Shown piece by piece: positions 12,027 to 46,598 of a stretch of 64,000 nt of DNA. Source of the stretch: Tangfeifania diversioriginum (GTDB taxonomy: Bacteria > Bacteroidota > Bacteroidia > Bacteroidales > Prolixibacteraceae). A program made the position numbers and the translations under genes. The stretch spans positions 62,001-126,000 of the forward strand of contig NZ_FQZE01000009.1 of NCBI RefSeq assembly GCF_900141875.1, written 5' to 3'. Below the pieces are notes generated by a model that made no database searches, had not been told where the DNA came from, and was given only the letters and a program-made list of their open reading frames with translations. The first letter of the stretch is position 1. Each line of letters starts with the position of its first letter.

Positions 12027-13244
12027 ATGAATGTTCTGGTAATTAACAGCGGTAGTTCTTCCATCAAGTTCAGGTTGTTTTGTATGCCTGAAGAAATCCT
12101 CGTTTTACAAGGAGTTGCTGAAAAAAACAGCGAAGGAAATACAACTTTTCGCATCAGTTCCCAAAAGGAAAAGACCGTAAAAAAGTGGAATGGATATTCC
12201 TGTAAAAAAATACTGGATGCTATTTTAAAAGAATTGGTAAGTCCGGCCAATGAATGTCTGTCATCGCTGAGCGAAGTAGATGTAGTTGGACACAGAATGA
12301 TCCATGGAGGTGAAAATGGAACCGGGTGCGTGGAAATAACTGACTCCCTTGTTGCTGAAATGCAAAAATTAGTGTCGCTGGCTCCCTTGCATTATCCGAC
12401 TAATCTTGAAGGAATAAATGCCACTCGTAAGCTTATACCGGATGTTTTTCATGCCGGGGTTTTCGATACTGCATTTCATCATACACTTCCTGAAAAGGCG
12501 TTTTTGTACGGCATTCCGTTCTCGTGGTACCAAAAACATAAAATCCGAAAGTTTGGTTTTCACGGCACTTCACATAAATATGCATCGCAGCGTGCCAGCC
12601 AAATTGCCGGTTTGGATTACCAATCGTCCAAAATTGTTTCGTGCCATTTGGGCAACGGGGCATCGGTAGCTGCCATAAAAAACGGAAAATCAATCGATAC
12701 TTCCATGGGGCTTACCCCGGTGGAAGGGGTGTTGATGGGGACGCGTTGCGGCGATATCGATGCCGGAGTGCTGATATATCTTCAGCAAAATTTTAATTTG
12801 TCGAACAGAGAAGTTCAGCAAATTATAAACAAGGAGAGTGGCTTGCTGGGGATTTCTGGTGTTTCGGGCGATTATCGTGCAGTGGAAAAGGCAGCGCAAG
12901 AAGGCAATAAAGCTGCGCGAACGGCGCTGGCGGTGTATCATTACCGGATAAAAAAATACTTTGGAGCTTATGCTGCTGCAATGGGCGGGCTCGATCTTTT
13001 GGCTTTTACAGGTGGCATAGGGCAAAACAGTGCAAATGCCCGAAAAGAAATCTGCAGTGATTTGGAGTTTTTGGGTGTTCAGCTTTCCGAAAAACAAAAC
13101 ACGGAGCTGAATGGTACGGAAGCAATCATTCAGCAGGAAAAAGCCAACGTGAAAATCGTGATTATTCCGGCCAACGAAGAATTGATGATTGCCCGCGAAG
13201 TGGCCGATCTGGCAAAACGAAAGCAGAAGGACAGATTAAGTTAA
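12027..13244 (+). CDS. ackA: Acetate kinase
   Basis: This 405-residue ASKHA-fold enzyme interconverts acetate + ATP and acetyl phosphate + ADP. Family signatures are complete: MNVLVINSGSSSIKF at the N-terminus, VVGHRMIHGG, the FHGTSHKYAS phosphate-binding segment, CHLGNGASV, DTSMGLTPVEGVLMGTR with the catalytic region, and FTGGIGQNSANAR near the C-terminus. It is cytoplasmic. The usual partner phosphotransacetylase (Pta) is not in the window; the next gene 140 bp downstream is a phosphate butyryltransferase, which may take that role for longer acyl groups or, with relaxed specificity, for acetyl. It is divergent from acs. Confidence 0.97.
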   Translation: MNVLVINSGSSSIKFRLFCMPEEILVLQGVAEKNSEGNTTFRISSQKEKTVKKWNGYSCKKILDAILKELVSPANECLSSLSEVDVVGHRMIHGGENGTGCVEITDSLVAEMQKLVSLAPLHYPTNLEGINATRKLIPDVFHAGVFDTAFHHTLPEKAFLYGIPFSWYQKHKIRKFGFHGTSHKYASQRASQIAGLDYQSSKIVSCHLGNGASVAAIKNGKSIDTSMGLTPVEGVLMGTRCGDIDAGVLIYLQQNFNLSNREVQQIINKESGLLGISGVSGDYRAVEKAAQEGNKAARTALAVYHYRIKKYFGAYAAAMGGLDLLAFTGGIGQNSANARKEICSDLEFLGVQLSEKQNTELNGTEAIIQQEKANVKIVIIPANEELMIAREVADLAKRKQKDRLS

Positions 13245-13384
13245 AATTCTTTGTCGATTCAATAGTGTAGATTTCGTTTTGACATCCGAAAGTTTTTTAA
13301 CTATGGTTAAAAACATAAATAAAACTGAGAAAAGTTACCAATTGGGAAAAAGTATTGTTCTAAATTCGGACAAAAATCCTAAAT

Positions 13385-14287
13385 ATGGAAAATCTAAACT
13401 TTGAAGATTTACTGGAACAGGTAAAAAAGCAACCCGAAAAAAGATTGGTTGTTGTAAACGGTGTGGATGTAAATACACTGGAAGCTTTGAATAAAGCGGT
13501 TGAAATGGGTTTGGTGAAAGCTATTTTAACCGGAGACAGGGAGAGAATTGAAGAAACTTGCAGCAATCTGGATATCGATATCAATAACTATGAGATAGTT
13601 CACACCCTCTCGGAACGCGAAGCTGCCGAGAAAGCAGTTGGCTTGATTCACGACGGGAAAGCTGATTTGATAATGAAAGGTTTGGTTTCTACCGATAAGT
13701 TTATGAAGGTGCTGCTGAAAAAGGAGTATGGACTGGTGCCCCCCCGGGGGATTTTAAGCCATGTGGCCCTGATGGAAAACCCGAACTACCACAAACTGCT
13801 GGTGTTTTCCGATGCCGGTGTGATTCCTTATCCCGATTTGCAGCAGAAAATTACCATGACCCGCTACCTGATTCAAACTGCACAATCACTGGGAATTGAA
13901 AAACCCAAAGTGGCGGTAATTGCCCCTACCGAACAAATTATTATTTCCATACAGTCGTGCATGGACGGAGCCACTATTGCAAAAATGTCGGAACACGGAC
14001 AAATTGAAGGCGGCGAAGTGGACGGGCCAATGGCACTCGATGTGGCCATTAATCGGAATTCAGCATCGATAAAAGGATTTACCTCGTCTGTGGCCGGCGA
14101 TGCCGATTGCCTGCTTTTCCCGAATATTGACGCAGCCAATGTATTTTACAAAACCAACTCGAAACTTTGCAAAGCCCAGATGGCAGGAATTATTGCAGGG
14201 GCAAAAGTGCCTGCTGTGGTTGTGTCCAGGGGAGATAGCGAAAGAATAAAATTTAATTCAATTGCCATGGCCTCGTTAATCAGTTAA
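13385..14287 (+). CDS. ptb: Phosphate butyryltransferase
   Basis: This 300-residue protein of the Pta/Ptb fold transfers the butyryl group between CoA and phosphate. Recognisable segments are KGLVSTDKFMKVLLKKEYGL, LSHVALMENP, FSDAGVIPYPDLQQK, DGPMALDVAINRNSA and LLFPNIDAANVFYKTNS. The length is right for Ptb and short of full Pta. It ends 13 bp before butyrate kinase, the classic ptb-buk operon order. Together they convert butyryl-CoA (or branched acyl-CoA) to the acid with ATP formation, or run in reverse. The start ATG at 13385 follows an A-rich leader. Confidence 0.95.
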   Translation: MENLNFEDLLEQVKKQPEKRLVVVNGVDVNTLEALNKAVEMGLVKAILTGDRERIEETCSNLDIDINNYEIVHTLSEREAAEKAVGLIHDGKADLIMKGLVSTDKFMKVLLKKEYGLVPPRGILSHVALMENPNYHKLLVFSDAGVIPYPDLQQKITMTRYLIQTAQSLGIEKPKVAVIAPTEQIIISIQSCMDGATIAKMSEHGQIEGGEVDGPMALDVAINRNSASIKGFTSSVAGDADCLLFPNIDAANVFYKTNSKLCKAQMAGIIAGAKVPAVVVSRGDSERIKFNSIAMASLIS

Positions 14288-14300
14288 TCAGTTTTTACGA

Positions 14301-15374
14301 ATGCACAGAATATTAGCCATAAATCCGGGATCAACTTCCACCAAGTTTGCTGTTTATTTCGATGATAAATGTGTGTTGAACAAAACCATCCGGCATTCGA
14401 TGGATGAGTTGATGAGTTACAAAAATGTAGTCGAACAGTTCGATTTTAGAAAAGGATTTATTATCGATGCACTGGTAGAGGAAGGCATTGAGGTGGATTC
14501 CATCAAAACGGTTATTGGCCGCGGGGGACTTACCTATCCTCTCGAGTCGGGGGTTTATCGTGTGAACAACCAAATGATTAAACACGCCCACAAAGGAGTT
14601 CTTGGACAACATGCAAGTAATTTGGGGCCTATGTTGGCCGATTACATTGCCTTGCAAATTCCAAATGCGCAGGCCTTTATTGCCGATCCGGTGGTAACCG
14701 ACGAACTGGATGATGTGGCCCGGGTTGCCGGGCATCCCAATTTCGAGCGGGTTTCCATTTTTCATGCACTGAACCAGAAAGCTACTGCGCGGGTTCATGC
14801 CCAAAAAGTGAACAAACAATATGAAACGCTGAATCTGATTGTGGCTCATTTGGGCGGAGGAATATCGGTTGGTGCCCACAAAAAAGGCAGGGTGGTGGAT
14901 GTAAACAATGGTTTTGATGGCGAAGGCCCTTTCAGCCCAGAGCGAGCCGGGACACTTCCTGTTGGACAATTAATTGCAGCTTGTTACAGCGGCAAATATT
15001 CCGAGGACCAAATTCGCCGCATGGTTGTGGGCGAGGGAGGCTACGTGGGCTATCTTGGAACCAACAGTGCCCAGGAAGTGCAGGAGCTGGCGCAATCGGG
15101 CAACGAAAAGGCAAAATTTATCCAGGAAGCGTTGTTTTACCAGGTTTCAAAAATTATTGGTGAAATGGCGGTAGTGCTCGAAGGAAAAGTTGATGCCATA
15201 CTCCTTACCGGCGGATTAGCTTACAACGAGGAACTCGAAAAATACATCCAAATAAAAACCGGATTTATTGCAACAGTTTATACCTACCCTGGCGAAGACG
15301 AACTGGAAGCGCTGGCCATGAATGCCCTGCGTGTGGCACGGGGAGAGGTGGAGGTGAAGGAGTACCAAAAGTAG
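14301..15374 (+). CDS. buk: Butyrate kinase
   Basis: This 357-residue ASKHA-fold kinase interconverts butyryl phosphate + ADP and butyrate + ATP. It begins MHRILAINPGSTSTKFAVY, and has GRGGLTYPLESGVYRVN, IADPVVTDELDDVARVAGHP, the VAHLGGGISVGAHKKGRVVDVNNG stretch containing the nucleotide-binding glycines, DGEGPFSPERAGTLP, and LLTGGLAYNEEL. These features separate Buk from AckA. Translation is probably coupled to ptb (13-bp gap). Branched-chain substrates such as isobutyrate or isovalerate are as likely as butyrate in Bacteroidota; the sequence does not decide this. Confidence 0.96.
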   Translation: MHRILAINPGSTSTKFAVYFDDKCVLNKTIRHSMDELMSYKNVVEQFDFRKGFIIDALVEEGIEVDSIKTVIGRGGLTYPLESGVYRVNNQMIKHAHKGVLGQHASNLGPMLADYIALQIPNAQAFIADPVVTDELDDVARVAGHPNFERVSIFHALNQKATARVHAQKVNKQYETLNLIVAHLGGGISVGAHKKGRVVDVNNGFDGEGPFSPERAGTLPVGQLIAACYSGKYSEDQIRRMVVGEGGYVGYLGTNSAQEVQELAQSGNEKAKFIQEALFYQVSKIIGEMAVVLEGKVDAILLTGGLAYNEELEKYIQIKTGFIATVYTYPGEDELEALAMNALRVARGEVEVKEYQK

Positions 15375-15476: not shown

Positions 15477-17375
15477 ATGAGAAAAAATATCGTTTCGTTT
15501 TGGCCGATTTTTATCCTGATTTTCCTTGCATTTTCATTTCAATGTTCGCAGGCCTTTTCTCTATCCGAAAGCGGAGAAGAAGACATTCCAAAATTAAACA
15601 ATCCGGTTACTGAACAGTACCTCAGGAAGAACCTGCGGAAATCGCAACCGCGTCTGGTTCTGAATTCTAAAATTGAAAGTCATCTAAAAAAAGAGTTGAG
15701 AACCAATCCGGTGGTTCAGAATATGTACAAAGCCATTCAGTTAAATGCTGCTGAAATTCTTGACAAACCACTGCTGGAGCGGGTGATGACCGGCCGCCGG
15801 TTACTTTCCGTTTCACGCGAAATGCTTTACCGGATGAATATGCTGGGTATGGTTTACCGGATGGAAAAGGAGGAAGAAATTTTGCAGCGTATAAACGATG
15901 AGGTGATTGCAGTGTGTAATTTTGCAGACTGGAACCCTTCCCATTTTCTGGACGTAGCTGAAATGTCGCTGGCCGTGGCACTGGCACTCGACTGGACAGC
16001 CGGAAATTTGCCTCAGTCAACCATCGAAATGGCCCAAAATGCGCTGATTGAAAAGGGAATTAAACCTTCCTGGCTCGAAAATGGCGACACTTTATGGTGG
16101 GTGAACGGTACCAACAACTGGAACCAGGTGTGTAACGGGGGCATGATCGCCGCTTCCATTGCAGTTGCTGAAAAAGCCCCGGAGCTGGCTGCCAAAACAA
16201 TTCACCGGTCGCTTAACGGAATTCCTTTCGCACTGGCAGAATACATCCCCGATGGTTTGTATCCTGAAGGCTCTACGTACTGGGGATATGGAACCAGTTT
16301 TTCCGTTATCACTTCGGCTATGCTCCAAAGTGCTTTCGGTACCGATTTTGGCATTGCCGATTACCCGGCATTTAAAGAAAGTGCGACATTCAGGGTTTTA
16401 ATGAATGCACCGTCGGGTTGGTATTACAACTTTGCCGATTGTGGCGACAAGCGCAGTGAAAAAGGAGATGTTGCGCTGGCTTGGTTTGCTGCTCAAACCG
16501 GGAATAAAAATTATTTTGAACGTGAACGGTTTTTGATTCAGCCAAACAAAATGGGAAAACTTCAGCGATTAGGTGGTGCGGCACTGGTGTGGATTTCGCA
16601 GTTTGAGAAAAGCACTAACGAGAAATTGCCCACTGCCTGGAAAGGCGAGGGCGACAACCCGGTGGTTGTTTTCAGAGGCGACGATGACAATCCACACCAA
16701 TTTTATTTTGGCGGAAAAGGCGGCCGCGCTACAACAAGCCACGGGAACATGGATGCCGGGTCGTTTATTTTTGAATTGAACGGCGTTCGCTGGGTGATTG
16801 ATCCGGGAAATCAATCGTATCACGAACTCGAGAAAACAGGCTTCAATTTGTGGGGAAGCTGCCAGGAGTGCGACCGCTGGAAACTGCTTACCAAAAATAA
16901 TTTTGGGCACAGCACTATTTCAGTAAATAACGAATTGTTTGTGAACGACGGATTTGCCCCACTCATCAGTTTTAAAAAAGGACAACAACCGGAGGCTGTG
17001 TTTGACTTGTCAGCAGTTTACGGCGAAAATATGAAACGAGTTATCCGCAAATTTCAGAAAGAGAATTCCTCCTCGCTGATAATTGAAGATAATATTGAAA
17101 CTTCGGATGAAACTGAAGTTATTGTCTGGCAGCTAATGACCACAGCCAATGTGCAAATCCAGCCGGGGGGCATTGAATTGTCAAAAAATGGAAAAACACT
17201 GCAGGTGGAAAACTTGTCGCACCCCGATTTTGATTTTTCAGTGGTTTCACTGGATCCACCTCCTTTTGAACTCGACCGGCAAATGGAAGGATTGAAACGA
17301 ATTGAATTGCGTATTCCGGCATGGATAGTTAAAGGAAGAAAAGAAACCATAAAAGTGAGACTGGCTGGAAATTAA
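15477..17375 (+). CDS. Secreted heparinase II/III family polysaccharide lyase-like protein
   Basis: This 632-residue protein has an N-terminal signal peptide (hydrophobic stretch FWPIFILIFLAFSFQ then CSQAFS; the cysteine could instead be a lipoprotein lipobox). The middle part (about 60-380) is an alpha/alpha-toroid of the alginate-lyase/heparinase type (WWVNGTNNWNQVCNGGM, YIPDGLYPEGSTYWGYG). The C-terminal half (about 400-632) is the heparinase II/III-like beta-sandwich (GRATTSHGNMDAGSFIFELN, RWVIDPGNQSY). The family eliminates uronic-acid-linked glycans with Asn/His/Tyr catalysis. The Tyr of TYWGYG, the NGTNNWN asparagine and the His of SHGNMD are plausible catalytic or metal residues. It begins a tight operon with a PL8-type lyase and a sulfatase-rhamnosidase, so a sulfated uronic-acid polysaccharide is the probable target. 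The exact PL family is uncertain. Confidence 0.85.
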   Translation: MRKNIVSFWPIFILIFLAFSFQCSQAFSLSESGEEDIPKLNNPVTEQYLRKNLRKSQPRLVLNSKIESHLKKELRTNPVVQNMYKAIQLNAAEILDKPLLERVMTGRRLLSVSREMLYRMNMLGMVYRMEKEEEILQRINDEVIAVCNFADWNPSHFLDVAEMSLAVALALDWTAGNLPQSTIEMAQNALIEKGIKPSWLENGDTLWWVNGTNNWNQVCNGGMIAASIAVAEKAPELAAKTIHRSLNGIPFALAEYIPDGLYPEGSTYWGYGTSFSVITSAMLQSAFGTDFGIADYPAFKESATFRVLMNAPSGWYYNFADCGDKRSEKGDVALAWFAAQTGNKNYFERERFLIQPNKMGKLQRLGGAALVWISQFEKSTNEKLPTAWKGEGDNPVVVFRGDDDNPHQFYFGGKGGRATTSHGNMDAGSFIFELNGVRWVIDPGNQSYHELEKTGFNLWGSCQECDRWKLLTKNNFGHSTISVNNELFVNDGFAPLISFKKGQQPEAVFDLSAVYGENMKRVIRKFQKENSSSLIIEDNIETSDETEVIVWQLMTTANVQIQPGGIELSKNGKTLQVENLSHPDFDFSVVSLDPPPFELDRQMEGLKRIELRIPAWIVKGRKETIKVRLAGN

Positions 17376-17449
17376 TTTTTCGCATTCTTCCCGGAATACG
17401 TCGGGGGGTAAAACTCTGCGTGGTGGATTTTTGGATAAAGATTGATTAT

Positions 17450-19672
17450 ATGAGAAATTATTTAAAATTACTGACTGCTATTGTGCTTACTGCCCTTGCA
17501 ACCAATTCAATTGGCGCTTCAACCGATTTTGAAATCATTAAAAAACGCGTGGTGGAAGCCCTTATTCAGCCCGGCGTGAATGACGCTGAAATTCAGCCAT
17601 TGATTAACAATTTGCAGGAGGACGGCACCTGGCCTGGCATCGATTACGAAGATGTTTCGAATGAAGGTTTTCAGCACAGCCGGCATTATTCCAATATGGT
17701 TAACCTGGCGTGGGCATACCGGAAAGAATCTTCTGCTTTTTATAAAAGCCCGGAAGTATTAAAAGCGCTGGAAGCTGCATTGAAAAACTGGGTGGACAAC
17801 GACTACATTTGCGAAAACTGGTGGTTTAACCAGATTGGTACACCCGACAACCTGGTTGATGTATTGCTGCTTGCCGGTAACGATCTTCCGGAAGAGTTGG
17901 TGGAAAAAACACAGCCAATTATTGGGCGGGCCAACATTGATGCACCGGGCGCACGACCTGGCGGCGATCGCATTAAAATTGCCGGTATTCAGGCCAAAAA
18001 CATGCTTTTCCTCGGCGATCGTGAAACTTTTGAAAAAGTAGTCAGGGTAATTGAAAATGAAATAAAGTATGTGGAGTGGGTTGGCAAAAAATACGGTTAT
18101 ACCTACCGGCGCCATTCCGGAGGTTTTGGCAACCGATCGGCAGGCGGAAGGGGCATTCAGTACGGAAACAGTTTTCATCATCGTACCGATGGCGTAAATA
18201 ACACCCTCTCTTACGGAATCGGATATGCCAATGCCTTTGTAGAGTGGGCGGTTTACACGGCAGGTACCCGTTTTGCGTTTGCTGAAGAAAAATTATCGCG
18301 GTTAGTGGATTATTACCTCGATGGTATTTGCAAAACTGCTGTTTTCGGGAAATATCCCGATCCGGGGGCTAAAAACCGGAGCGTGAGCCGCCGTGGAACT
18401 TTGCGGCCTTACAGTGCAAAAACTGCTGAGAATTTGCTCCTCACAACCAATTACCGTAAAAAAGAATTACAGGAAATTGCCGATATCCGAAATAATGGGA
18501 TCGCTCCTACACTTTCGCATGCTACTTTTTTCTGGAACTCGGAACATTTTTCATTTCAGCGGCCCGGTTGGTTTGCTTCGGTGCGGATGTATTCAACCCG
18601 CAACCATAACATGGAAGTACCCTACAACAGCGAAGGATTACTCAATCATCACCGGGGCGACGGCGCTAACCACATTTCGCGCACCGGCGATGAATATTAC
18701 GACATTTTTCCGGTATTCGACTATCAAAAAGTGTCGGGAACTACCATCATGCAAAAGCCTGAATTACCTGATCCCAGCCAGATTCAGAAAATTGGGCTGA
18801 CCGATTTTGTGGGAGCAGTAACCGATGGTATTTACGGGGCGGTGGCTTTCGATTTTAAAAGTCCGCACGATCCGTTGATTGCCCGCAAATCCTGGTTTTT
18901 TTTCGATAAAATGTTTGTTTGCCTCGGAGCAGGAATTTCCTGTAAAAATGACAACTCCCCGGTTGTTACTACACTGAATCAGTGCCTGCTGAAGGGCGAT
19001 GTAACCGTTTCTTCAGGAAATAATAGTTCGGTAATTCAACATGGCGAAAAAAAATTGAAAAGCGTGGATTGGATTTTTCATGATGGAATCGGTTACGTTT
19101 TTCCAAACCCGGCAACGGTGCAATTAAAAAACAGCGCCGAAACCGGTTCGTGGTGGAAGATCAGCAAACAAAGCAGTACACCAAAAGATGAAATCAGCCT
19201 CGACATTTTTAAACTTTGGGTACCCCACGGCAAAAGGCCATCGGATGAAACCTATGAGTATATTGTTGTGCCGGCGGCTACGGTCGAAAAAATGAAACAG
19301 AACAGCTCCCAAAATAATATCCGCATACTTTCAAATACCCCTGAAGTACAAGTTGTAATGAACACGAAGCTGGGAATCTGCCAGGCCGTTTTTTACCAGG
19401 CTGGCGAAATCCAGGTTTCTGAAAACCTGAAACTTATTTCTGATAATCCCGGTATTATAATGCTTAAAATGAAGGATGAGAAAGTGACCGAAATTTCAGT
19501 GGCCGATCCCAACCGCGAGCTGAGCAGATTTCATCTTTCTATTTCAGAAAAAATGGAAAAATATGGGGATAATTTTAGCGCTGTGTGGAATGAAAAGGAT
19601 GGACTTACCCACGTGTCGGTTAAGTTACCTCAAGATAATTATGCCGGTGACAGCTTTACAATTGAATTATAA
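17450..19672 (+). CDS. Polysaccharide lyase family 8-like (chondroitin AC/hyaluronate lyase type)
   Basis: Starting at the ATG at 17450 gives 740 residues with a clean signal peptide (MRNYLKLLTAIVLTALATNSIGA); a GTG at 17420 would add ten residues that spoil it. The N-terminal alpha-toroid contains ENWWFNQIGTPDNLVDVLLL (catalytic Asn) and SFHHRTDGVNNTLSYGIGY, giving the catalytic His and Tyr in PL8 order. The central beta-domain has WFASVRMYSTRNHNMEVPYNSEG and HRGDGANHISRTGDEYYDIFPV. Length and layout match PL8 enzymes, which split hyaluronan, chondroitin or xanthan by beta-elimination in the periplasm or at the cell surface. It starts 75 bp after the heparinase-type gene and ends 19 bp before the sulfatase fusion. 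Substrate choice within PL8 cannot be read from these motifs alone. Confidence 0.9.
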   Translation: MRNYLKLLTAIVLTALATNSIGASTDFEIIKKRVVEALIQPGVNDAEIQPLINNLQEDGTWPGIDYEDVSNEGFQHSRHYSNMVNLAWAYRKESSAFYKSPEVLKALEAALKNWVDNDYICENWWFNQIGTPDNLVDVLLLAGNDLPEELVEKTQPIIGRANIDAPGARPGGDRIKIAGIQAKNMLFLGDRETFEKVVRVIENEIKYVEWVGKKYGYTYRRHSGGFGNRSAGGRGIQYGNSFHHRTDGVNNTLSYGIGYANAFVEWAVYTAGTRFAFAEEKLSRLVDYYLDGICKTAVFGKYPDPGAKNRSVSRRGTLRPYSAKTAENLLLTTNYRKKELQEIADIRNNGIAPTLSHATFFWNSEHFSFQRPGWFASVRMYSTRNHNMEVPYNSEGLLNHHRGDGANHISRTGDEYYDIFPVFDYQKVSGTTIMQKPELPDPSQIQKIGLTDFVGAVTDGIYGAVAFDFKSPHDPLIARKSWFFFDKMFVCLGAGISCKNDNSPVVTTLNQCLLKGDVTVSSGNNSSVIQHGEKKLKSVDWIFHDGIGYVFPNPATVQLKNSAETGSWWKISKQSSTPKDEISLDIFKLWVPHGKRPSDETYEYIVVPAATVEKMKQNSSQNNIRILSNTPEVQVVMNTKLGICQAVFYQAGEIQVSENLKLISDNPGIIMLKMKDEKVTEISVADPNRELSRFHLSISEKMEKYGDNFSAVWNEKDGLTHVSVKLPQDNYAGDSFTIEL

Positions 19673-19691
19673 AATAAATAGATAAACAAAA

Positions 19692-22600
19692 ATGAAACTA
19701 AAATTAACCATCTTACTGTATTCTTTCAGCTTCCTTTGCTGCAATTCTCTGTCATTTGCTCAGGAGAGCGGAACAAACGAGTCGGAAAATCCCAACATCA
19801 TTTTCATCCTTACCGACGATCAGCGCTGGAGCGCATTGGGGTATTCCGGAAATCCTTTGGCAACCACTCCCGAAATGGATAAACTGGCAGATGCCGGTGC
19901 ATATTTTCAGAACGCAATAGTAACAACTCCTATTTGTTCGGCGAGTCGCGCCAGTATTTTTAGCGGAGTTCACGAGCGTACCCATAGGTACACCTTCCAA
20001 ACCGGAAATATACGAAGAGAGTTTATGGAAAATGCTTATCCCAAATTGCTAAAACAAGCAGGATATTTCACTGGTTTTTTCGGAAAGTTTGGTGTGAATT
20101 ATCCCGGCAGTGAAAAGATGTTTGATGAGGTGGAAATTTTCGATCGGAACAACCGGTTTGAGGATTACCGCGGATATTGTTATAAATCACTAAACGGTGA
20201 TACAGTTCACTTGACCCGTTATACCGGGCAAAAGGCGCTCGATTTTATCGATGATGCACCTGTGGATAAACCTTTTTGCCTGTCGTTGAGTTTCAGTGCA
20301 CCACATGCGCACGACGGCGCACCGCTTCAGTATTTCTGGCAGGAAGAACCGGACAAACTTTATCAGAACATGGAAATGCCCAAAGCCGATATTTCGGAGG
20401 ACAAATATTTTGAGGTTTTGCCACAACCGGTAAAAGATGGTTTTAACCGCGTTCGCTGGTTCTGGAAAAACGATACTCCCGAAAAATACCAGCGAAGCAC
20501 CAAAGGGTATTACCGGATGATTTATGGCATCGACCTTGAAATTGCCAAAATAAGGAAGAAACTTACTGAAAAAGGCCTGGACAAAAACACGGTAATTATT
20601 TTAATGGGCGACAACGGTTTTTTCCTCGGCGAACGCCAGATTTCAGGCAAATGGCTGATGTACGATAATTCAGTGAGGGTTCCATTAATTATTTACGATC
20701 CTCGTACGCAAAAACATCGTGATATCGACGAAATGGGATTAAATATTGATATTCCTGCCACTATTTTGGATTATGCCGGAATTGATATCCCTGAAATTTA
20801 CCAGGGAAAAAGTTTGGTGCCGCTAATTTCAGGCGAAGAAAAAACACTTAATCGCGATACCATTTTAATCGAACACCTTTGGGAGTTTGAACATATTCCG
20901 CCCAGCGAAGGAGTGCGCACTGCAGAATGGAAATACATGCGCTATATCAACGATAAATCGTCGGAAGAATTTTATAATCTTAAAGATGATCCGAAAGAGA
21001 TAAACAACCTGGTCCAAAATCCAAAATATCAAAAAGAACTGGCATCGTTCCGCAAAAAGATGGAAGAATTGGGACAACGCTATGCCGATCCTTATTCAGG
21101 TATTCCGTCGGATCTAACCGTGGAATATATTCGCGACCCGCGTTTCACAAAAATAATCGACAGCAAACCTGAATTTAGCTGGGTGGTGCCCAAAGAAGCG
21201 GTCATTCAAAAAGGGTATCAAATCCTGGTTTCTTCAACCAAACAAAACATCGATAACAACATCGGCGACGTGTGGGACAGCGGAAATGTACGCAGCAGCC
21301 ATTCGGTTGATATTGAATTTGGCGGCGAACCCCTGTCGGAAAACACGGAATATTTCTGGAAGGTGCGGATTTTTGATCAAGACAACCGCCTATCGGAATA
21401 TTCTTCACCTCAAAAATTTACCACCGGAAGTTTTAAAGAAAAAAGCATCACTACTTCCAACTGGTTTCAAATTGAAAGGATTCAACCAAAAAAAATGGTT
21501 CAGGATTCGGATGGCAGTTATTTTATTGATTTTGGGAAAGCTGCATTCGGAACACTTGAAATTAATTACTCAGCCAAAACATCGGAAACGTTAACCATTC
21601 ATTTGGGCGAAAAACTGCTGGAAGGAAAAATCGATCGCAACCCGGGAGGAACAATCCGGTACCAGAAAGTTCAGCTGGAAGTTTCGCCTGAAAAGAAAAA
21701 TTACCAGATTGAACTGACACCCGACAAACGCAACACCAACGAAATGGCAGTGGCGCTTCCCGATTCCTTTCCAGTGATTATGCCATTCCGTTATGCTGAA
21801 ATTGAAGGGATCAAAAGTTTGTCTTCTGACGATGTAACCCAGGTTGCTTATTTTAATTATTTTGAAGAAGGGACAAGCGCTTTTACCAGTTCCAACACCA
21901 TTCTGAACCAGGTTTGGGAGCTCTGTAAATATTCGCAAAAAGCTACATCATTTGCCGGAGTTTATGTGGATGGCGACCGCGAGCGGATTCCCTACGAAGC
22001 CGATGCTTACCTGAATCAGTTAAGCCATTATTCGGTGGACAACGAATATGCCATAGCGCGCAAAACCATCGAGTATTTTATGGAAAAACCCACCTGGCCA
22101 ACTGAGTGGCAGTTGCATGTGGCGCTCATGTTTTACCAGGATTACTTGTACACCGGGAATACCGAACTGATTGAAAAGTATTACGATGAATTAAAGCATA
22201 AAACCTTGATGGCTCTGGAGGTGGAAGACGGTTTTATATCGACATCCGCGCCCGGGCACACCGGTGAACTGATGATGAACCTGGGATTTGCCGATTCTAC
22301 CCAGCGGTTGCGCGATATTGTGGACTGGCCGCAAAAAGGTGGGTTTGGCGGCGTAATTGGCGAAGACGACGGTTTTGTGTTCAGGCCGGTAAATACCGTA
22401 ATCAATTCGCTGTATTACCAAAACATGAATATTATGGCTGAATTTGCGGGACTGCTGGGAAAAACAGGCGATAAACTCGATTTTAAATTCAGGGCAGCCC
22501 GGGTGAAAAAATCAATTAATGAACAGTTGTATAACCAGGGAAAAGGATATTACAGCGACGGACTGGGCACAGACCACGGATCGGTTCATGCCAATATGTT

Positions 22601-23210
22601 TCCGCTGGCATTTGGAATTGTGCCGGAGGAGTACAAACAAAATGTGGTCAACCACATCAAATCACGCGGAATGGCCTGCAGTGTTTATGGTGCGCAGTAT
22701 TTAATGGAAGCCGTTTACAATGCCGGAGAAGCGGATTATGCACTGGAGCTGATGAACGCCACCCACGACCGCAGTTGGTACAACATGATTAAAGTGGGGG
22801 CAACCATTACCATGGAAGCCTGGGACATGAAATACAAACCTAACTCCGACTGGAACCACGCGTGGGGTGCTGTTCCAGCCAATATTATTCCACGGTATTT
22901 GTGGGGAATTCAGCCCAAAACCGCGGGTTTTGAAATGGTGACCATAAAACCACAAATGGGTACCTTAAAAAACAGCTCCGTTAAAATGCCCACACTCCGG
23001 GGGGAAATTACAGGTGAATACAATCGGGTAAATAACCGGTTTGCAAGATATACTATTGAATTGCCTTCAAATATGGCGGGCGAGTTCATTACAGATTTTG
23101 CTTCTGAAGATGTGGTTACCATAAACGGAGAAACCGTAAATCCTGCGTTTGGCACAATCCGGTTGAGCCCGGGAAAAAATGAAATAGAAATCAGGGTGAA
23201 TTCGTTTTGA
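19692..23210 (+). CDS. Sulfatase (S1) fused to GH78 alpha-L-rhamnosidase, secreted
   Basis: This is a 1172-residue secreted protein with signal peptide [23 protein letters not shown]. Residues ~30-470 are an S1 arylsulfatase: [20 protein letters not shown] (metal-binding Asp pair) and formylglycine site ICSASRAS (C-x-A-x-R form). [12 protein letters not shown] follows with the second metal Asp-Asn. The usual GKWH is GKFG, so the histidine is changed. Residues ~490-590 are a fibronectin-like linker. Residues ~600-1172 are a GH78 rhamnosidase with [24 protein letters not shown] (likely catalytic Glu) and [20 protein letters not shown]. Formosa agariphila ulvan clusters encode a comparable sulfatase/GH78 multimodular enzyme, and rhamnose 3-sulfate next to uronic acid is the ulvan repeat. 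Ulvan or another sulfated rhamno-uronan is therefore the leading target; this is inference. Confidence 0.9.
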
Positions 23211-23326
23211 CAATTTTGCTTGTTAAACTGTTAATGAGAATCCCTGCCATTTCCGCATGTTATTTTCCTTGGTTTATTTTTTGATGGGATCTCGTTTTCG
23301 CCTAAATTTGATTAAGAAAATTAAAT

Positions 23327-25555
23327 ATGACAGAACAGGAGCTCAATAAAAGTTATTCGAAAATTTGCAGAAATTTGGAAAGCCGCAAGCTGAAACCTGC
23401 ATTCGACATGCTGGGAAAACTGATTGCGGATAATAACCTTGGCGTTTTTAACGACGAATACCGCAACCTGGAAGAAACATACCATTTTATGCTAAAATAC
23501 ACCGTTGAAGGAATCCAGGATCCGGAGCGGCAGAAGGTGTACCGCAAATTAATTGTTTCGGTTTTTGAACTGGCCGAAAATGTGAACCAGGCACTGCGCA
23601 CCAAATTTTCGCCATCGGTTGAATACGAAAAAAAACGGTTGTTTAAAAATCAGTATATCAGCAATCTTGAAAATTATATTTCTGAGCTTGAAGATTTTTA
23701 TCTGGATCATGAGATTCAATCAATAGTAAACAACCAGGCAAAAACAAATTCGGATAAAATGACAGCCGCCCGCGAACACCAGCAAAAAATGTTCAGGCTT
23801 TTTTACCATGTTTGGTTTCGCGATAAACTGCAAAACGGCGAGAAGGAAACACTTACCGGATTTTTTACCAATCCGCTCAGCTCGGTGGCTTACCGGTCGT
23901 TTATAATTTCAGCAGTAACACTCAGTCTGCAACGTTATTTCGATGAGGCCAAATTTTCGGTGCTTTTTGAGGCGTATGCTTCCGAAGAGCCAGAAGTGAG
24001 CCAGCGTGCCTTGGTGGGGTTGCTTATCAATTTTTACCGCTACGATGCCCGGTTGCCATTTTACCCGGCTATTACAGGCCGGCTGAAAATCCTGAATGAA
24101 GATCCTGCTTTCAAAAAAAATCTCGAGCGGATTATCGTTCAGTTTATCCGAAGTAAGGAAACCGAAAAAATTCAGCAAAAAATCAGGGACGAAATTATTC
24201 CCGAAATGATCCGCATCAGCCCCAATTTTAAAGATAAAATTAACCTCGACAGCCTGATGGAAGAAGGTTTGGGCGACGATAAAAACCCGGAGTGGGAGGA
24301 GATTTTCAAGGATTCGCCCGGGTTAATGGATAAAATGGAAGAGTTTTCGGAATTGCAGATGGAAGGCGCTGATGTATTCATGGGGTCGTTTTCCATGCTG
24401 AAATCATTCCCTTTCTTCAATGAAATCGGGAACTGGTTTTTGCCGTTTTATACCGAAAATCCTTCCATCTCGAATGTGGTGGACACCAACGACGAAACCA
24501 ACCGGAAGTTTGTGGAAGTTATCAGCAGTGCCCCCATTTTATGTAACTCCGATAAGTATTCGTTTTGTTTCAGCATGCAAAACCTGCCGGAGCAAAACCG
24601 CGAGTTCCTGGCCAAGGGCATGGAAGCCGAAATGGGGCAGCTGGAAGAACTGGGAAAAGACGAAGAGCTGGTTTCACCCGGCCGAAAAGCGGAATTTATT
24701 TCCAATCAGTATATCCAGGATTTGTACCGCTTTTTTAAACTGCACCCGCGTAAAAATGACTTTGAAGATATTTTTAACTGGCGCTTCGATTTTTACAATA
24801 AAATTGCCTTGGGAAATATCCTGAAAGAAGATCCCAAAGTTTTGCGGAACATTGCTGAATATTACTTCGCTAAAAACCATTTTGAAGAAGCCGCCGAAAT
24901 TTACAATTACCTTCTGGAAGAGAAGAAAGACGGCGAATTGTACCAGAAAATAGCTTATTGTTACCAAAAACGGGGCGACTTTGAAAAAGCGCTTGATGCT
25001 TACCTGAAAGCAGAATTGTATGATTTGAACCGTTTGTGGAACCTCAAAAAAATTGCGCTGTGTTACCGCAATCTCAAACAACCGGCAAAGGCGCTGGAAT
25101 ATTACCAGGCAGCCGAAAAAATCGATCCCGAAAGTTTGAATAATCAGCTGAATATTGGTCATTGTTATCTGGAGCTTGAGCAATTTGAGGAAGCGCTGAA
25201 ATGTTATTTTAAGGTGGAATACCTGGCACCGGGAAATAAAAAAGTGTGGCGACCCATTGCATGGTGCAGTTTTCTCTCAGGAAAAAAAGAGCAGGCCGAA
25301 AAATATTTCATGAAAGTGATTGAGGATGCACCCGGCAAGCACGATTTTATGAATATGGGACACGTGCAGTGGAGCTTGGGCAACCGAATGAACGCACTCG
25401 ATAATTATAAAAAATCAATTTCGAAAACCGGTTTTTCGGAGCTGGAATTTCTGGAAGTTTTTGAGGAAGATTTACCGCACCTCAAAAATCAGGGCATCGA
25501 CAGCGAAGATGTGCCGATTATGCTCGACCAGCTGAGGTATTTTTTGGAGGAGTAA
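23327..25555 (+). CDS. Tetratricopeptide-repeat protein
   Basis: This 742-residue protein has no signal peptide or membrane segment. The N-terminal ~470 residues are helical and charged without a family I recognise. From about 495 to 690 come TPR units, including LRNIAEYYFAKNHFEEAAEI, YQKIAYCYQKRGDFEKALDA and NQLNIGHCYLELEQFEEALK, each with the usual G/A-Y-F-A-P spacing. TPR arrays usually hold partner proteins. It stands alone, 116 bp after the polysaccharide operon and 39 bp before the HEPN/MNT pair. A predominantly cytoplasmic scaffold role is the most that can be said. Confidence 0.85.
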   Translation: MTEQELNKSYSKICRNLESRKLKPAFDMLGKLIADNNLGVFNDEYRNLEETYHFMLKYTVEGIQDPERQKVYRKLIVSVFELAENVNQALRTKFSPSVEYEKKRLFKNQYISNLENYISELEDFYLDHEIQSIVNNQAKTNSDKMTAAREHQQKMFRLFYHVWFRDKLQNGEKETLTGFFTNPLSSVAYRSFIISAVTLSLQRYFDEAKFSVLFEAYASEEPEVSQRALVGLLINFYRYDARLPFYPAITGRLKILNEDPAFKKNLERIIVQFIRSKETEKIQQKIRDEIIPEMIRISPNFKDKINLDSLMEEGLGDDKNPEWEEIFKDSPGLMDKMEEFSELQMEGADVFMGSFSMLKSFPFFNEIGNWFLPFYTENPSISNVVDTNDETNRKFVEVISSAPILCNSDKYSFCFSMQNLPEQNREFLAKGMEAEMGQLEELGKDEELVSPGRKAEFISNQYIQDLYRFFKLHPRKNDFEDIFNWRFDFYNKIALGNILKEDPKVLRNIAEYYFAKNHFEEAAEIYNYLLEEKKDGELYQKIAYCYQKRGDFEKALDAYLKAELYDLNRLWNLKKIALCYRNLKQPAKALEYYQAAEKIDPESLNNQLNIGHCYLELEQFEEALKCYFKVEYLAPGNKKVWRPIAWCSFLSGKKEQAEKYFMKVIEDAPGKHDFMNMGHVQWSLGNRMNALDNYKKSISKTGFSELEFLEVFEEDLPHLKNQGIDSEDVPIMLDQLRYFLEE

Positions 25556-25594: not shown

Positions 25595-25996
25595 ATGGCC
25601 AATGAAAAAATAGATATCGAAAAAATTACGAATCATTGGGAAAAAACATCCGACAGGGATTTTGAAACAATGATTCATCTTTATGAAAAGAAAGATTTGC
25701 ATTGGTCGTTATTTCTTGGGCATTTGGTTTTGGAACGATTATTAAAAGCTGCTGTTGTGCGGAATATTCAAAACCACGCTCCATATACCCATGATTTACG
25801 CAGGTTGGCAAAATTAACCCAATTTGAATTTAATGATGAGTATAAAATGTGGCTTGATACAATAACCACGTTTAATATCAATGCCAGGTACGATACCTAC
25901 AAACAGGATTTTTACAAAAAATGTACTCCTCAATTTACTGAACGCTGGATAGCTAAAATTAAAGAATTAAGAAAATGGATAAAACAACAGCTATAG
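25595..25996 (+). CDS. HEPN-domain protein, probable toxin half of a HEPN/MNT pair
   Basis: This 133-residue all-helical protein belongs to the HEPN family (PF05168 type). A segment WSLFLGHLVLERLLKAAVVRN covers helix 2, then RNIQNHAPYTHDLRRLAKL with the loop after it. The RX4H arrangement (R-NIQN-H) is the motif class used by HEPN RNases; canonical HepT has RX4HXY, whereas here Y is one residue further on (RNIQNHAPY). It overlaps the following MNT-type nucleotidyltransferase by 22 bp, the typical arrangement of HEPN/MNT modules, in which MNT AMPylates and silences HEPN. Toxicity and RNase activity are inferred from the pairing, not demonstrated by sequence. Confidence 0.8.
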   Translation: MANEKIDIEKITNHWEKTSDRDFETMIHLYEKKDLHWSLFLGHLVLERLLKAAVVRNIQNHAPYTHDLRRLAKLTQFEFNDEYKMWLDTITTFNINARYDTYKQDFYKKCTPQFTERWIAKIKELRKWIKQQL

Positions 25997-26294: not shown

Positions 26295-26762
26295 TCATCC
26301 CACTTCCTCTTTCAACACGTCGCGCACCATCAAAAAGTTTTCTTCGAGGCGGAGCATGTTTTCGATGAAAAAGTTGTAGATGTCGGGCCAGTCTGTGCGG
26401 CGGTGATAATTCACGTTATTCAGCACCGTGTAAATCCGGGCCACTTCCTGTCCGCTGTCTTCGCGTTGGTGAAAGAATTCCCAGATTAACCCATCAGGAA
26501 AACCATCTTCAATAACCACTTTGTAGTTTTCCAGAATTTCGTAGGCTTTCAGGCGTTTGTCCTCGTTTTTGTGGCTGAGTTCCAGTATGACTTTTGCATC
26601 CGATCTCGAAGCCTCAAAACGTAGCGCAACACCCCGTGTTTTTGTGCGATGCAGCATCCACTTTTTCTTCCGTTCGCGCAGTGATGGATGAATCTCGCAC
26701 CGCTTGCCAAACTGCCCCCAGAATTCCAGCCGTAGTTTTTTTGCTTCCTCTATTGAATACAT
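26295..26762 (-). CDS. DUF4268-family protein
   Basis: The ATG at 26762 gives 155 residues starting MYSIEEAKKLRLEFWGQFGKRC; a longer TTG-initiated frame to 26786 is less likely. The sequence RKKKWMLHRTKTRGVALRFEASRSDAKVILEL and NYKVVIEDGFPDGLIWEF fit DUF4268, a family with a restriction-endonuclease-like fold found free-standing or fused in DNA-modification loci. The function is not established. It converges on the MNT gene, with only 2 bp between their stop codons. Confidence 0.75.
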   Translation of the reverse strand: MYSIEEAKKLRLEFWGQFGKRCEIHPSLRERKKKWMLHRTKTRGVALRFEASRSDAKVILELSHKNEDKRLKAYEILENYKVVIEDGFPDGLIWEFFHQREDSGQEVARIYTVLNNVNYHRRTDWPDIYNFFIENMLRLEENFLMVRDVLKEEVG

Positions 26763-26887
26763 GTTAATAATGTTCTGATTCAGCAAAATAAATTTTTAAA
26801 TTTGAATAATGGTTGATTGTCATGTGAAATTTGAATTTTTTGATAATGTCTTGTGTCTATGGTCTAAAAATCTAATTGTCTCCTTTT

Positions 26888-28285: not shown

Positions 28286-29389
28286 TTAATTTTCTGCTTT
28301 CCACGCCGAAATTCCCTTAAACGCATTCCCGTCGCGGTTGAAAAGGCTTCTTCCGAGATACGGCACTCCGGTTCCGGGAACTTCCAGTCCGTCGGGTTTC
28401 CAGTAATACACCGAGGTAACTTTCGGGTACTTTTTCAGAATGTCGTTTAGTTTCACTAAAAAATCAAATTGTCCCTGTTCGTTTGGCGGGAAAGGCTGCA
28501 CGTCGAGTATCCATTCTGCCGGCTCAGGATACCAGCCGTTGGCATAATAAGCGGTTTCAACCACTGATATTTCCTGCTCATATTTATTCGACAAAAACTG
28601 GAGGTTGTTTTCCAGGTCATCAAAAGTGCCGTGCCACCAGGGATAGTAGCTCAACCCGATAATATCGAATTCCACTCCCCGTTGAAGAATGTTGCTGTAG
28701 AAATTATCCGACTCAACTAAATTCCCGCCCGTTGCGGCATGGATTAGTATGGGAATATTCGCTCCGTTTTCTGCCTCTTTTACACCTCGGATTCCGGCTT
28801 TCAGTAAAGTCGCCAGTTCTTCCCAATTGGCGCTGCCATCGTTGTTCCACAATTTTCCCTGCGGCCAAATCATGCCGTTATTTATTTCGTTGCCTATCTG
28901 CACCATGTCGGGGGCTGCTCCTGAATTATTCAGTGCATTCATTACTTTTTTGGTGTATTGGTAAACGCTGTCGCTCAGTGTGCCAATATCCAGGTTTTCC
29001 CAGGCTGCCGGCACATATTGTTTGGCCGGATCGGCCCAGGTATCGGAGTAATGAAAATCGAGCAGGAATTTGAATCCGTACGATTTTGCTTCCTTCGCCA
29101 AAGCAATGGTGTATCCCAAATCGTTGCAAACAGGGCCTTCCATGTTGGGAGAGTGAAATATACGCAACCGGCACCAGGTGTAATTATTGTCCTTAAAAAT
29201 TTGTAATCCCTCTTTTGTCTCGCCGTTAATTTTATATTCGCCGCCGGCATCTTCCAGTTTTTTCATGATGGAGAAATCGCCGCCATACTCCAGGATACTT
29301 TCTTCAGGCAGATTCTCGTTATTATTTTCCTTGTCTTTGCAGGAAAACGAAAAAAGCAACAACGCCAATGCTAAAACTAAATTACGCAT
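28286..29389 (-). CDS. GH53 arabinogalactan endo-beta-1,4-galactanase, lipoprotein
   Basis: This 367-residue lipoprotein has lipobox LFSFSC at residue 17, so it is membrane-anchored, probably on the outer surface. The GH53 TIM barrel is complete: GGDFSIMKKLEDAGGEY, WCRLRIFHSP, FKFLLDFHYSDTWADPAKQ, the acid/base Glu in QIGNEINNGMIWP, and the nucleophile Glu in SVVETAYY. The enzyme cleaves beta-1,4-galactan chains of pectic type I arabinogalactan. It is an orphan here: no galactosidase, SusCD pair or regulator is adjacent. Confidence 0.93.
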   Translation of the reverse strand: MRNLVLALALLLFSFSCKDKENNNENLPEESILEYGGDFSIMKKLEDAGGEYKINGETKEGLQIFKDNNYTWCRLRIFHSPNMEGPVCNDLGYTIALAKEAKSYGFKFLLDFHYSDTWADPAKQYVPAAWENLDIGTLSDSVYQYTKKVMNALNNSGAAPDMVQIGNEINNGMIWPQGKLWNNDGSANWEELATLLKAGIRGVKEAENGANIPILIHAATGGNLVESDNFYSNILQRGVEFDIIGLSYYPWWHGTFDDLENNLQFLSNKYEQEISVVETAYYANGWYPEPAEWILDVQPFPPNEQGQFDFLVKLNDILKKYPKVTSVYYWKPDGLEVPGTGVPYLGRSLFNRDGNAFKGISAWKAEN

Positions 29390-31080: not shown

Positions 31081-31450
31081 ATGACCAGGCTTGTGAAACG
31101 AATTCTTACCATCGACATCATGCGTGGGCTCACCCTTTTCCTGATGCTTTTTGTAAACGATTTGTACAGGAATAAGTATTCTTCTATTTGTGGTACTTTT
31201 CCTGATTATTGACGTGTGGGGAAAATCCAAATGGTGCAATGTGTTTAAACCTGCGGGTCAAAATTCGCTCACCACATACCTGGCACCAGATCTTATATAT
31301 TATATTGTATGGATGACCGGTTTCCCGTTGCTTTTTTACAAGCAGCTCGAAAGTCCGCTTTTGGTAATTGCCGGGTCGCTGGTTTGGGCATTTGCAATGA
31401 TTGGCTTTGCAGCGTTGTTGTCAAAAATTGGCATCAGGCTGAAGTTGTAA
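31081..31450 (+). pseudogene. Internally deleted DUF5009/heparan-acetyltransferase-like membrane protein gene
   Basis: The ATG at 31081 starts ILTIDIMRGLTLFLMLFVNDLY, the conserved N-terminus of DUF5009/HGSNAT-like inner-membrane acyltransferases, but its frame stops at 31210-31212. A second frame, 31190-31450, carries the family C-terminus: LFLIIDVWGKSKWCNVF, PAGQNSLTTYLAPDLIYY and two further helices ending at the TAA 31448-31450. A full protein of this family is ~370-480 residues; about 250 middle residues are missing and the halves are out of frame, with the junction near 31165-31175. This is a deletion scar, not a short gene. It lies directly upstream of the DUF2961 gene. Confidence 0.75.
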
Positions 31451-31500
31451 CTGCTGTTTTATTACCTTCGTGTTTTATCGCAAAACTAAAATATTCAATC

Positions 31501-33889: not shown

Positions 33890-35017
33890 ATGATAATACG
33901 AAATTTTTGGTTGCAGCAGTTAAATGAAGCATGGAAAGAAAGATCATTGATTTGGTTATCGGGTGTACGCCGAAGTGGTAAAACCACTTTGTGTAAAATG
34001 GTTCCTGATGCTATTTACATGAATTGTGATTTGCCCTCTGTGGTACGACAAATTGAAGATCCGGAATTTTTTTTTCACAATGTGACAGGAAACAATATAG
34101 TTATCTTCGATGAAATTCACCGAATTGAAAATCCAAGTGCTGTTTTAAAAATTGGGACAGATGAATTCCCCGAAATAAAAATTCTTGCCACGGGGTCTTC
34201 TACACTTTCTGCAACTAAAAAATTTAGGGATTCATTAGCCGGTAGAAAAGTACAGCTCTTTTTACCTCCTGTACTTTGGTCGGAATGCAACGCTAATTTT
34301 GGCATTTCTGATTTGGATCGTCGTTTAATTAGAGGAGGATTGCCTGAATTTCTCCTTGCTGATACAAAAATTGCGGAGCATTATTCGGAGTGGATGGATA
34401 GTTATTATGCCCGGGATATTCAGGAATTGTTCAATGTTAGGAATCGTACAGGTTTTTTAAAACTAATGCAATTAATTTTTTTGCAAAGCGGAGGTATGCT
34501 TGAAATTTCTTCTCTGGCAAAAGAATCTGGGTTGAGCAGGCCAACTGTAATGGCACACATTGAAGCATTAACTTTAGCTCATGCTATTTTCCCTGTGCCG
34601 CCTTTTTATGGGGGAGGCAAAAAAGAGATTGTGAAACGCCCAAAAGTATATGCTTTTGATACGGGTTTTGTTACTCATGTAAAAGGTTGGAATGAAATAA
34701 GAGAAACTGACAGAGGCATTCTATGGGAACACCTTGTTTTAGATATGCTTCGGACACAAAAAGGAAACGTATTTTATTGGGCGGATACCTATGGAAATGA
34801 AATAGACTTTATTGCAAAGGCCAGCACAGGGCAAGTTCATGCTTTTGAATGCAAAATTAATCCTGATAAATTTTCACCGAAAGCGTTGCTGAAATTTCGT
34901 GAATTTTATCCCGAAGGGAAAAATTTTTGTATTTCTCCCCATGTTCAGCATTCTTATAAATTAAGTTTTAAGGGAATTGAAGTAGAATTTCATTCCGGAC
35001 TTTTCAATCAGTGGTAA
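33890..35017 (+). CDS. AAA_14/DUF4143 ATPase
   Basis: This 375-residue protein shows Walker A GVRRSGKTT near residue 26, Walker B IVIFDEIHRIENP, the sensor ATGSSTLSATKKF, and the C-terminal DUF4143 domain with VYAFDTGFVTHVKG, ILWEHLVLDMLR and the YWADTYGNEIDFIAK/FECKIN nuclease-like pattern (D...E.K). The family is common as lineage-specific, often mobile, single-gene insertions in Bacteroidota, and its role is unsettled. Flanking 13-bp repeats (33735 and 35071) support an insertion history. A second, clearly different member lies at 49641-50900. Confidence 0.88.
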   Translation: MIIRNFWLQQLNEAWKERSLIWLSGVRRSGKTTLCKMVPDAIYMNCDLPSVVRQIEDPEFFFHNVTGNNIVIFDEIHRIENPSAVLKIGTDEFPEIKILATGSSTLSATKKFRDSLAGRKVQLFLPPVLWSECNANFGISDLDRRLIRGGLPEFLLADTKIAEHYSEWMDSYYARDIQELFNVRNRTGFLKLMQLIFLQSGGMLEISSLAKESGLSRPTVMAHIEALTLAHAIFPVPPFYGGGKKEIVKRPKVYAFDTGFVTHVKGWNEIRETDRGILWEHLVLDMLRTQKGNVFYWADTYGNEIDFIAKASTGQVHAFECKINPDKFSPKALLKFREFYPEGKNFCISPHVQHSYKLSFKGIEVEFHSGLFNQW

Positions 35018-39480: not shown

Positions 39481-39498
39481 TTATTAAAGTAGATTATT

Positions 39499-41103: not shown

Positions 41104-41128
41104 AGTTTCACATCTATAAAAGAAAATT

Positions 41129-43135: not shown

Positions 43136-43159
43136 GCTATTTCTGAATTATAATTTTTT

Positions 43160-43198
43160 AATAAAGAGGATGTCAATATGGCATCCTCTTTATTTTTT
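43160..43198 (+). terminator. Strong Rho-independent terminator between the two SusCD units
   Basis: A perfect stem AATAAAGAGGATG/CATCCTCTTTATT with loop TCAATATGG is followed by six T. It separates the first SusCD-lipoprotein operon from the second. Confidence 0.88.
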
Positions 43199-43381
43199 AG
43201 TGCATCAGTAAAATTCAGTAGAATGAATAGATATTATGACTTTCAGCGAGAAAAGTGGGAAGTATTGTTTTTACTCGTAAGGAATATAATAACTTTGCAT
43301 TCCTTGTTTGGTGCAGTGGTTTTTTGGTTCATACCATTGCATTTAAGAGAGAGAGAGAATACCGAATCAAAGCAAATATTT

Positions 43382-46573: not shown

Positions 46574-46598
46574 TTGAGAAATTTAAAAAATCAGCAAA

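What the first reader, a model, noticed from the sequence alone, without database searches (positions are those of the whole stretch)
15477..23210. Compact secreted operon: heparinase-type lyase, PL8-like lyase and sulfatase-GH78 fusion
Two uronan lyases with a combined sulfatase/rhamnosidase suggest degradation of a sulfated rhamnose- and uronic-acid-containing glycan such as ulvan. PL8 is unusual in such a context and no SusCD pair is adjacent, so this is a regulator-free mini-cluster with possible new substrate specificity.
Basis: partly seen in the sequence, partly recalled or inferred. Interest (0 to 1): 0.6.

Follow-up and report, generated by a model that had tools for sequence, protein, structure and literature searches.

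The report
Shortened Prolixibacteraceae uronan-lyase locus with odd PL8
Three neighbouring bacterial genes encode two sugar-acid-cutting lyases and a two-in-one sulfatase/rhamnosidase whose nearest studied relative degrades seaweed ulvan; they look like a stripped-down copy of a larger gene cluster found in related bacteria, and one lyase belongs to a group in which the usual catalytic histidine is replaced by arginine.

Summary
Three same-strand genes encode a PL35-type lyase, a PL8-type lyase and an S1 sulfatase-GH78 fusion. The fusion matches the solved Formosa agariphila ulvan enzyme P36_S1_25 over the whole sulfatase domain (E 1.5e-206).

A rhamnose-3-sulfate/uronate glycan such as ulvan is the best guess, but PL8 is not unusual here. 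In relatives of the same family (Draconibacterium, Mariniphaga), PL35 and PL8 open a larger multi-lyase locus (extra PL35, PL12, second PL8, GH145/PL42-like BNR_4, often SusC/D) that can end in the same fusion. Some copies sit beside the same Acs/ptb/buk genes. The window keeps only the first, second and last genes, and its genome lacks BNR_4 and other Hepar_II_III lyases, so it is probably a contracted locus.

New point: the window's PL8 belongs to a clade (61 of 61 examined, several Bacteroidota families) in which the PL8 neutralizer Asn is Asp and the catalytic-His column is Arg. The ~30%-identical paralogs in the same loci and chondroitinase AC keep Asn/His (15 of 15). Chemistry and substrate are untested. 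A glycosaminoglycan-like substrate remains a real rival, because PL8+PL35+PL38 clusters are known GAG loci.

The parts
15477..17375 (+). PL35-type (alpha/alpha) toroid + Hepar_II_III lyase, 632 aa; 'N-type' subclade. Catalytic N213/N214, Y268 and H422 kept; one Mn-ligand His of GAGase II (His403) is N424
   Evidence: GAGase II residues from PMC12088678
17450..19672 (+). PL8-type lyase, 740 aa from the likely ATG (ORF opens at GTG 17420); member of a clade with a changed active site
17966..17968 (+). Asp183 codon (numbered from GTG 17420): column of the PL8 neutralizer Asn (N175 of chondroitinase AC)
18068..18139 (+). approx. 22-residue insertion just before the catalytic motif, shared by the window's PL8 subclade only
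18182..18184 (+). Arg255 codon: column of the PL8 catalytic His (H225 of chondroitinase AC), within the motif FHHRxDxVNNTxSYG
18212..18214 (+). Tyr265 codon: catalytic Tyr (Y234 of chondroitinase AC), conserved
19692..23210 (+). S1 sulfatase (about residues 26-467) fused to a GH78 alpha-L-rhamnosidase (about 472-1170), 1172 aa; relative of F. agariphila P36 (S1_25|GH78)
19935..19949 (+). sulfatase active-site motif C82-S-A-S-R
12027..15374 (+). ackA - ptb - buk, the upstream neighbours; ptb/buk or ackA/ptb/buk flank the same locus in L116 and L109
23280..23310 (+). Bacteroidota-type promoter-like match (TTTG-N19-TAAATTTG) before the next gene (TPR protein, 23327), suggesting the trio's unit ends at 23210
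   Evidence: consensus match only

Best explanation
The trio is a contracted, largely vertically inherited version of a Prolixibacteraceae multi-lyase polysaccharide utilization locus for a sulfated glycan containing rhamnose and uronic acid (ulvan or ulvan-like). Proposed flow: (1) secreted PL35 and PL8 cut uronate linkages by beta-elimination, leaving unsaturated uronate at the new non-reducing ends (inferred). (2) An unsaturated uronyl hydrolase of GH88/GH105 type, encoded elsewhere in the genome, removes it (gene shown, role inferred). (3) The S1 domain of the fusion removes the 3-sulfate of the exposed rhamnose and the GH78 domain then removes the rhamnose (shown for the F. agariphila relative, inferred here). 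The cycle repeats. The sequence facts, family assignments and synteny are shown; substrate, order of steps and co-transcription are inferred.
For: Fusion: PDB 6hr5 hit at 690 bits over residues 26-467 with the Cys motif kept. P36's two domains act in sequence on ulvan oligosaccharides Rha3S-X-Rha3S (PMC8511951). Locus: in D. sediminis (L116) the order is ptb-buk-PL35-PL8-S1-BNR4-PL12-BNR4b-S1GH78; G111 (L109) has Acs-ackA-ptb-buk-SusD-PL35-x-x-PL8; Mariniphaga (L107) has acd-x-Acs-x-PL8-PL12-BNR4b-S1GH78. The window fusion groups with the Mariniphaga one (support 0.997) among fusions mostly from lyase-rich loci. BNR_4 members of these loci are closest to GH145/PL42, families that cleave Rha-alpha-1,4-GlcA. 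The own genome has one PL8, one Hepar_II_III, no BNR_4 and two strong GH88-family genes. GC matches the neighbours.
Against: PL8 and PL35 members characterised so far act on GAGs, alginate or xanthan, not ulvan. No PL24/25/28/40 ulvan lyase was identified in the genome; BNR_4 is absent, while PL28 and PL40 were not searched with a dedicated profile. The PL8 clade occurs in more family genomes without the fusion (24) than with it (18), so its substrate need not contain Rha3S. No close SusD of the larger locus exists in this genome (best 39%). The direction of change (loss in the window rather than gain in relatives) rests on parsimony, not a formal reconstruction.
Confidence: 0.5

Rival explanations
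1. The PL35-PL8 pair degrades a glycosaminoglycan or GAG-like glycan (hyaluronan, chondroitin, heparosan-like), and the sulfatase-GH78 gene is a neighbour serving another substrate.
For: A marine Bacteroidota GAG locus with SusC/D, PL8, PL35, PL38 and CE19 has been reported, and its enzymes cleave HA/CS (PMC13027841). Relatives' loci here also contain PL12 (nearest PDB: heparinase III) and PF05426 Alginate_lyase-domain genes. The pair occurs without the fusion in many genomes.
Against: The fusion follows PL8 by 19 nt in the window and closes the lyase run in several relatives. PL8-A and fusion co-occur more than expected across 140 family genomes (odds ratio 4.9, Fisher p 2.6e-4, not corrected for phylogeny). 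GH145/PL42-like genes in the larger loci point to Rha-GlcA linkages.
Confidence: 0.25
2. The substrate is another Rha-GlcA glycan (arabinogalactan-type side chains, rhamnan sulfate, diatom or cyanobacterial sulfated exopolysaccharide) rather than ulvan.
For: GH145/PL42 relatives act on Rha-GlcA caps of gum arabic. D. sediminis has a second fusion copy beside GH88-type (c18), GH43 and BNR_4 genes (L154), so the copy in the lyase-rich locus may have another target.
Against: The fusions at the two D. sediminis loci are close relatives nested in one clade, and the characterised member acts on ulvan oligosaccharides (PMC8511951).
Confidence: 0.15
3. The window's PL8 is not a conventional lyase: with the His column changed to Arg and Asn to Asp it is inactive, or has become a dehydratase or C5-epimerase.
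For: 61 of 61 clade members have Asp/Arg where the paralogs and the aligned chondroitinase AC have Asn/His. A dehydratase is part of the ulvan pathway (PMC8511951), and an epimerase shares the general fold (PMC11848413).
Against: Tyr, both Arg columns (three Lys), Glu and Asn of the active site are kept in the whole clade. Arg serves as neutralizer in PL15 and Asp in PL8 chondroitinase ABC II (PMC12088678 table 4). An invariant His lies one residue before the Arg and could fill the role.
Confidence: 0.15

Closest known systems
Formosa agariphila ulvan PUL H, protein P36 (S1_25 | GH78), PDB 6hr5 (PMC8511951)
   Same: Same domain order; strong match over the whole sulfatase domain with the Cys motif kept
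   Different: PUL H has SusC/D, PL28/PL40 lyases, GH105, GH3 and dehydratase P29; the window has PL35 and PL8 instead and none of the rest adjacent
PL35 GAGases (GAGase II 8khv, GAGase VII 8khw, BcPL35 9o3q)
   Same: Full-length match; catalytic Asn-Asn, Tyr and His columns identical
   Different: Window subclade has Asn instead of the Mn-ligand His403; the window protein has His instead of Glu428; substrate untested
PL8 chondroitinase AC (1hm2/1cb8)
   Same: All three PL8 domains; NWW, Tyr, Arg, Arg, Glu, Asn columns kept
   Different: Asn175 is Asp, the His225 column is Arg, one extra residue before Tyr, and a 22-residue insertion in the window subclade
Roseihalotalea indica GAG-PUL (PL8, PL35, PL38, CE19; PMC13027841)
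   Same: PL8 next to PL35 in a marine Bacteroidota locus
   Different: RiPL8 is 1066 aa with an extra N-terminal domain; no sulfatase-GH78 fusion is described; the substrate there is HA/CS

Membership tests
Ulvan PUL (F. agariphila PUL H type) | S1_25-GH78 fusion | tested here: met
Ulvan PUL (F. agariphila PUL H type) | adjacent SusC/SusD | tested here: not met
   nearest pairs at 36-48 kb, and the genome's best SusD match to the relatives' locus SusD is 39%
Ulvan PUL (F. agariphila PUL H type) | ulvan lyase of PL24/25/28/40 | tested here: inconclusive
   PF15892 (BNR_4, which PL25 members carry) absent from the genome; PL28/PL40 not profiled
Ulvan PUL (F. agariphila PUL H type) | GH105/GH88 in the locus | tested here: not met
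   two strong PF07470 genes, both on other contigs
PL8 | three-domain PL8 architecture | tested here: met
PL8 | catalytic Tyr with Arg/Glu/Asn | tested here: met
PL8 | catalytic His and neutralizer Asn (chondroitinase AC type) | tested here: not met
   R255 and D183, invariant in the clade
PL8 | lyase activity | not testable with these tools
   needs assay
PL35 | full-length similarity and catalytic Asn/Tyr/His | tested here: met
PL35 | Mn site (His403, Asp405, Asp421, His457 of GAGase II) | tested here: inconclusive
   three of four kept, His403 is Asn
S1 sulfatase | C-x-P/A-S-R formylglycine motif | tested here: met
   C82SASR
GH78 | (alpha/alpha)6 catalytic domain plus Ig-like, ConA-like and C-terminal domains | tested here: met
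   PF17389, PF25788, PF05592, PF17390
GAG PUL (PL8+PL35 type) | PL8 adjacent to PL35 | tested here: met
GAG PUL (PL8+PL35 type) | induction by or activity on GAGs | not testable with these tools
   needs growth or assay data

The most novel reading that the evidence does not exclude
The window's PL8 clade is a catalytically rewired branch of PL8 in which an Asp-Arg pair replaces the Asn-His pair, giving a Tyr-driven elimination (or another uronate reaction) on a rhamnose-linked uronate: a lyase specificity not known for PL8, working with the N-type PL35.
Probability: 0.35. Interest if true: 0.6.

Novelty: new variant of a known kind. Interest (0 to 1): 0.42.

Why it matters
If active, the PL8 clade would show that the PL8 catalytic His can be exchanged for Arg together with Asn to Asp, and could add two lyase groups to the tools for rhamno-uronans. 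It also shows how a multi-lyase locus can shrink to a three-gene core at a fixed chromosomal site, which matters for predicting glycan use from partial loci.

Tried and rejected
AlphaFold of the PL8 with 7 sequences gave mean pLDDT 59.6, with 217-268 and 302-333 below 50, so it says nothing about the active site and was not used for fold search. Recent horizontal transfer of the trio: GC and GC3 match neighbours, no support. A BNR_4 = PL25 reading of the relatives' genes was dropped after a profile search put GH145/PL42 far ahead of PL24/PL25. Literature searches for a PL8 with Arg at the catalytic His found nothing relevant. Sigma-70 promoter and terminator scans did not exceed shuffles usefully. 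PL35-N hits outside the family gave little extra context: two of three contigs were about 4 kb, and the third had the PL35 without PL8. A labelling bug in one script was corrected.

Full report
What is there. Three same-strand genes, 15477-17375, 17420-19672 and 19692-23210, encode a PL35-type lyase, a PL8-type lyase and an S1 sulfatase-GH78 fusion. They lie between ackA-ptb-buk (12027-15374) and a TPR gene at 23327. The PL8 start is probably ATG 17450. N-termini look like export signals by eye only. A Bacteroidota-type promoter-like match at 23280 sits before the TPR gene. None of this shows co-transcription.

The fusion. Its sulfatase half aligns over residues 26-467 with PDB 6hr5, P36_S1_25 of F. 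agariphila (690 bits), with motif C82SASR. In that bacterium the sulfatase removes sulfate from the non-reducing Rha3S of Rha3S-X-Rha3S and the GH78 domain then removes the rhamnose (PMC8511951). Relatives of the window fusion occur in 75 public genome loci; about 25 carry both domains, including loci of Zobellia, Maribacter and Pricia with SusC/D or GH88-family neighbours.

PL35. All catalytic residues reported for GAGase II (Asn191/192, Tyr246, His401; PMC12088678) are conserved. The window protein belongs to a subclade where Mn-ligand His403 is Asn; the other subclade (HGHMD, as in characterised GAGases) often sits just downstream of the PL8 in relatives.

PL8. Nearest solved relative is chondroitinase AC. 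Aligned to it, Asn175 is Asp183, the catalytic His225 column is Arg255, and Tyr234, Arg288, Arg292, Glu371 and Asn374 are kept (Y265, R320, R324, E399, N403). A profile search of the PDB places the same Arg under the His of chondroitinase AC and hyaluronate lyase; in the PL8 mannuronate lyase 7r2x the printed gap shifts the pair by one residue. Over 76 PL8 sequences including chondroitinase AC, 61 of the window's clade have Asp+Arg (3 of them with Lys for Arg292) and 15 have Asn+His, with no mixtures; the set includes some duplicate copies of the same gene fetched twice. The clade reaches other Bacteroidota families at roughly 45-50% identity. The motif FHHR keeps an invariant His one residue upstream, so a register shift is possible. 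The AlphaFold model was too poor to decide.

Locus history. In 21 family genomes with this PL8, a window-type PL35 is in the same stretch in 16 and directly adjacent in 11 (my count; several stretches end at contig edges). Larger loci read [SusC-SusD]-PL12-PL35-PL8-PL35-BNR4-PL12-PL8b-BNR4b-fusion with variations. Three have neighbours of the window's site: D. sediminis L116 (ptb-buk), G111 L109 (Acs-ackA-ptb-buk) and Mariniphaga L107 (acd, Acs). The window retains PL35, PL8 and fusion in the same order. The window fusion is sister to the Mariniphaga one (0.997). The own genome has a single PL8, a single Hepar_II_III gene and no BNR_4 gene, and no close SusD of the locus (39% best). Contraction is therefore the simplest reading; gain in relatives was not formally excluded.

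Substrate. For a rhamnose/uronate sulfated glycan: the fusion, and the BNR_4 genes of the larger loci, nearest to GH145 and PL42 that act on Rha-GlcA. For a GAG-like glycan: PL35, PL8, PL12 and alginate-lyase-domain genes, and the Roseihalotalea GAG locus (PMC13027841). PL8-A and the fusion co-occur above expectation (18 of 140 genomes with both, odds ratio 4.9, p 2.6e-4), but that test ignores phylogeny and more genomes have the PL8 without the fusion. Unsaturated uronates could be handled by GH88-family genes on contigs C52 and C38.

Verdict. Observation confirmed. Interpretation partly supported. Individually the proteins are members of known families; the altered PL8 active site and the contracted locus make it a new variant of a known kind.

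Noticed in passing
window 23327-25555; L025:2289-4496: The TPR-repeat gene downstream of the fusion has a 70%-identical relative that also directly follows a GH78 gene in a Bacteroidales MAG (L025), so this neighbour may be an old one.
   Followed up: partly
L154 (D. sediminis second locus) and L116: Draconibacterium sediminis carries two sulfatase-GH78 fusions: one in the lyase-rich locus, one beside GH88-type (c18), GH43 and BNR_4 genes.
   Followed up: partly
L004:5109-6506, L114:8717-10153 and relatives: BNR_4 proteins of the larger loci are nearest to GH145 rhamnosidases and PL42 Rha-GlcA lyases, not PL25 ulvan lyases; uncharacterised.
   Followed up: partly
window 36307-48137: Two SusC/SusD pairs around a 668-aa protein (41129-43135) with no Pfam match.
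   Followed up: no
window 31309-33570 and 28286-29389: A DUF2961 protein and a GH53 galactanase-family protein lie between the trio and the SusC/D pairs.
   Followed up: no
window 25595-25996, 26295-26786 and 33890-35017: A small HEPN-domain gene, a DUF4268 protein matching PADLOC PDC-S11 weakly, and a DUF4143/AAA_14 ATPase matching PDC-S01.
   Followed up: partly
L133:2799-3902 (G000 C38): A GH88/GH105-family gene with an export-like leader stands alone beside fumarase-like and histidine-biosynthesis-like genes, a candidate partner for the lyases.
   Followed up: no
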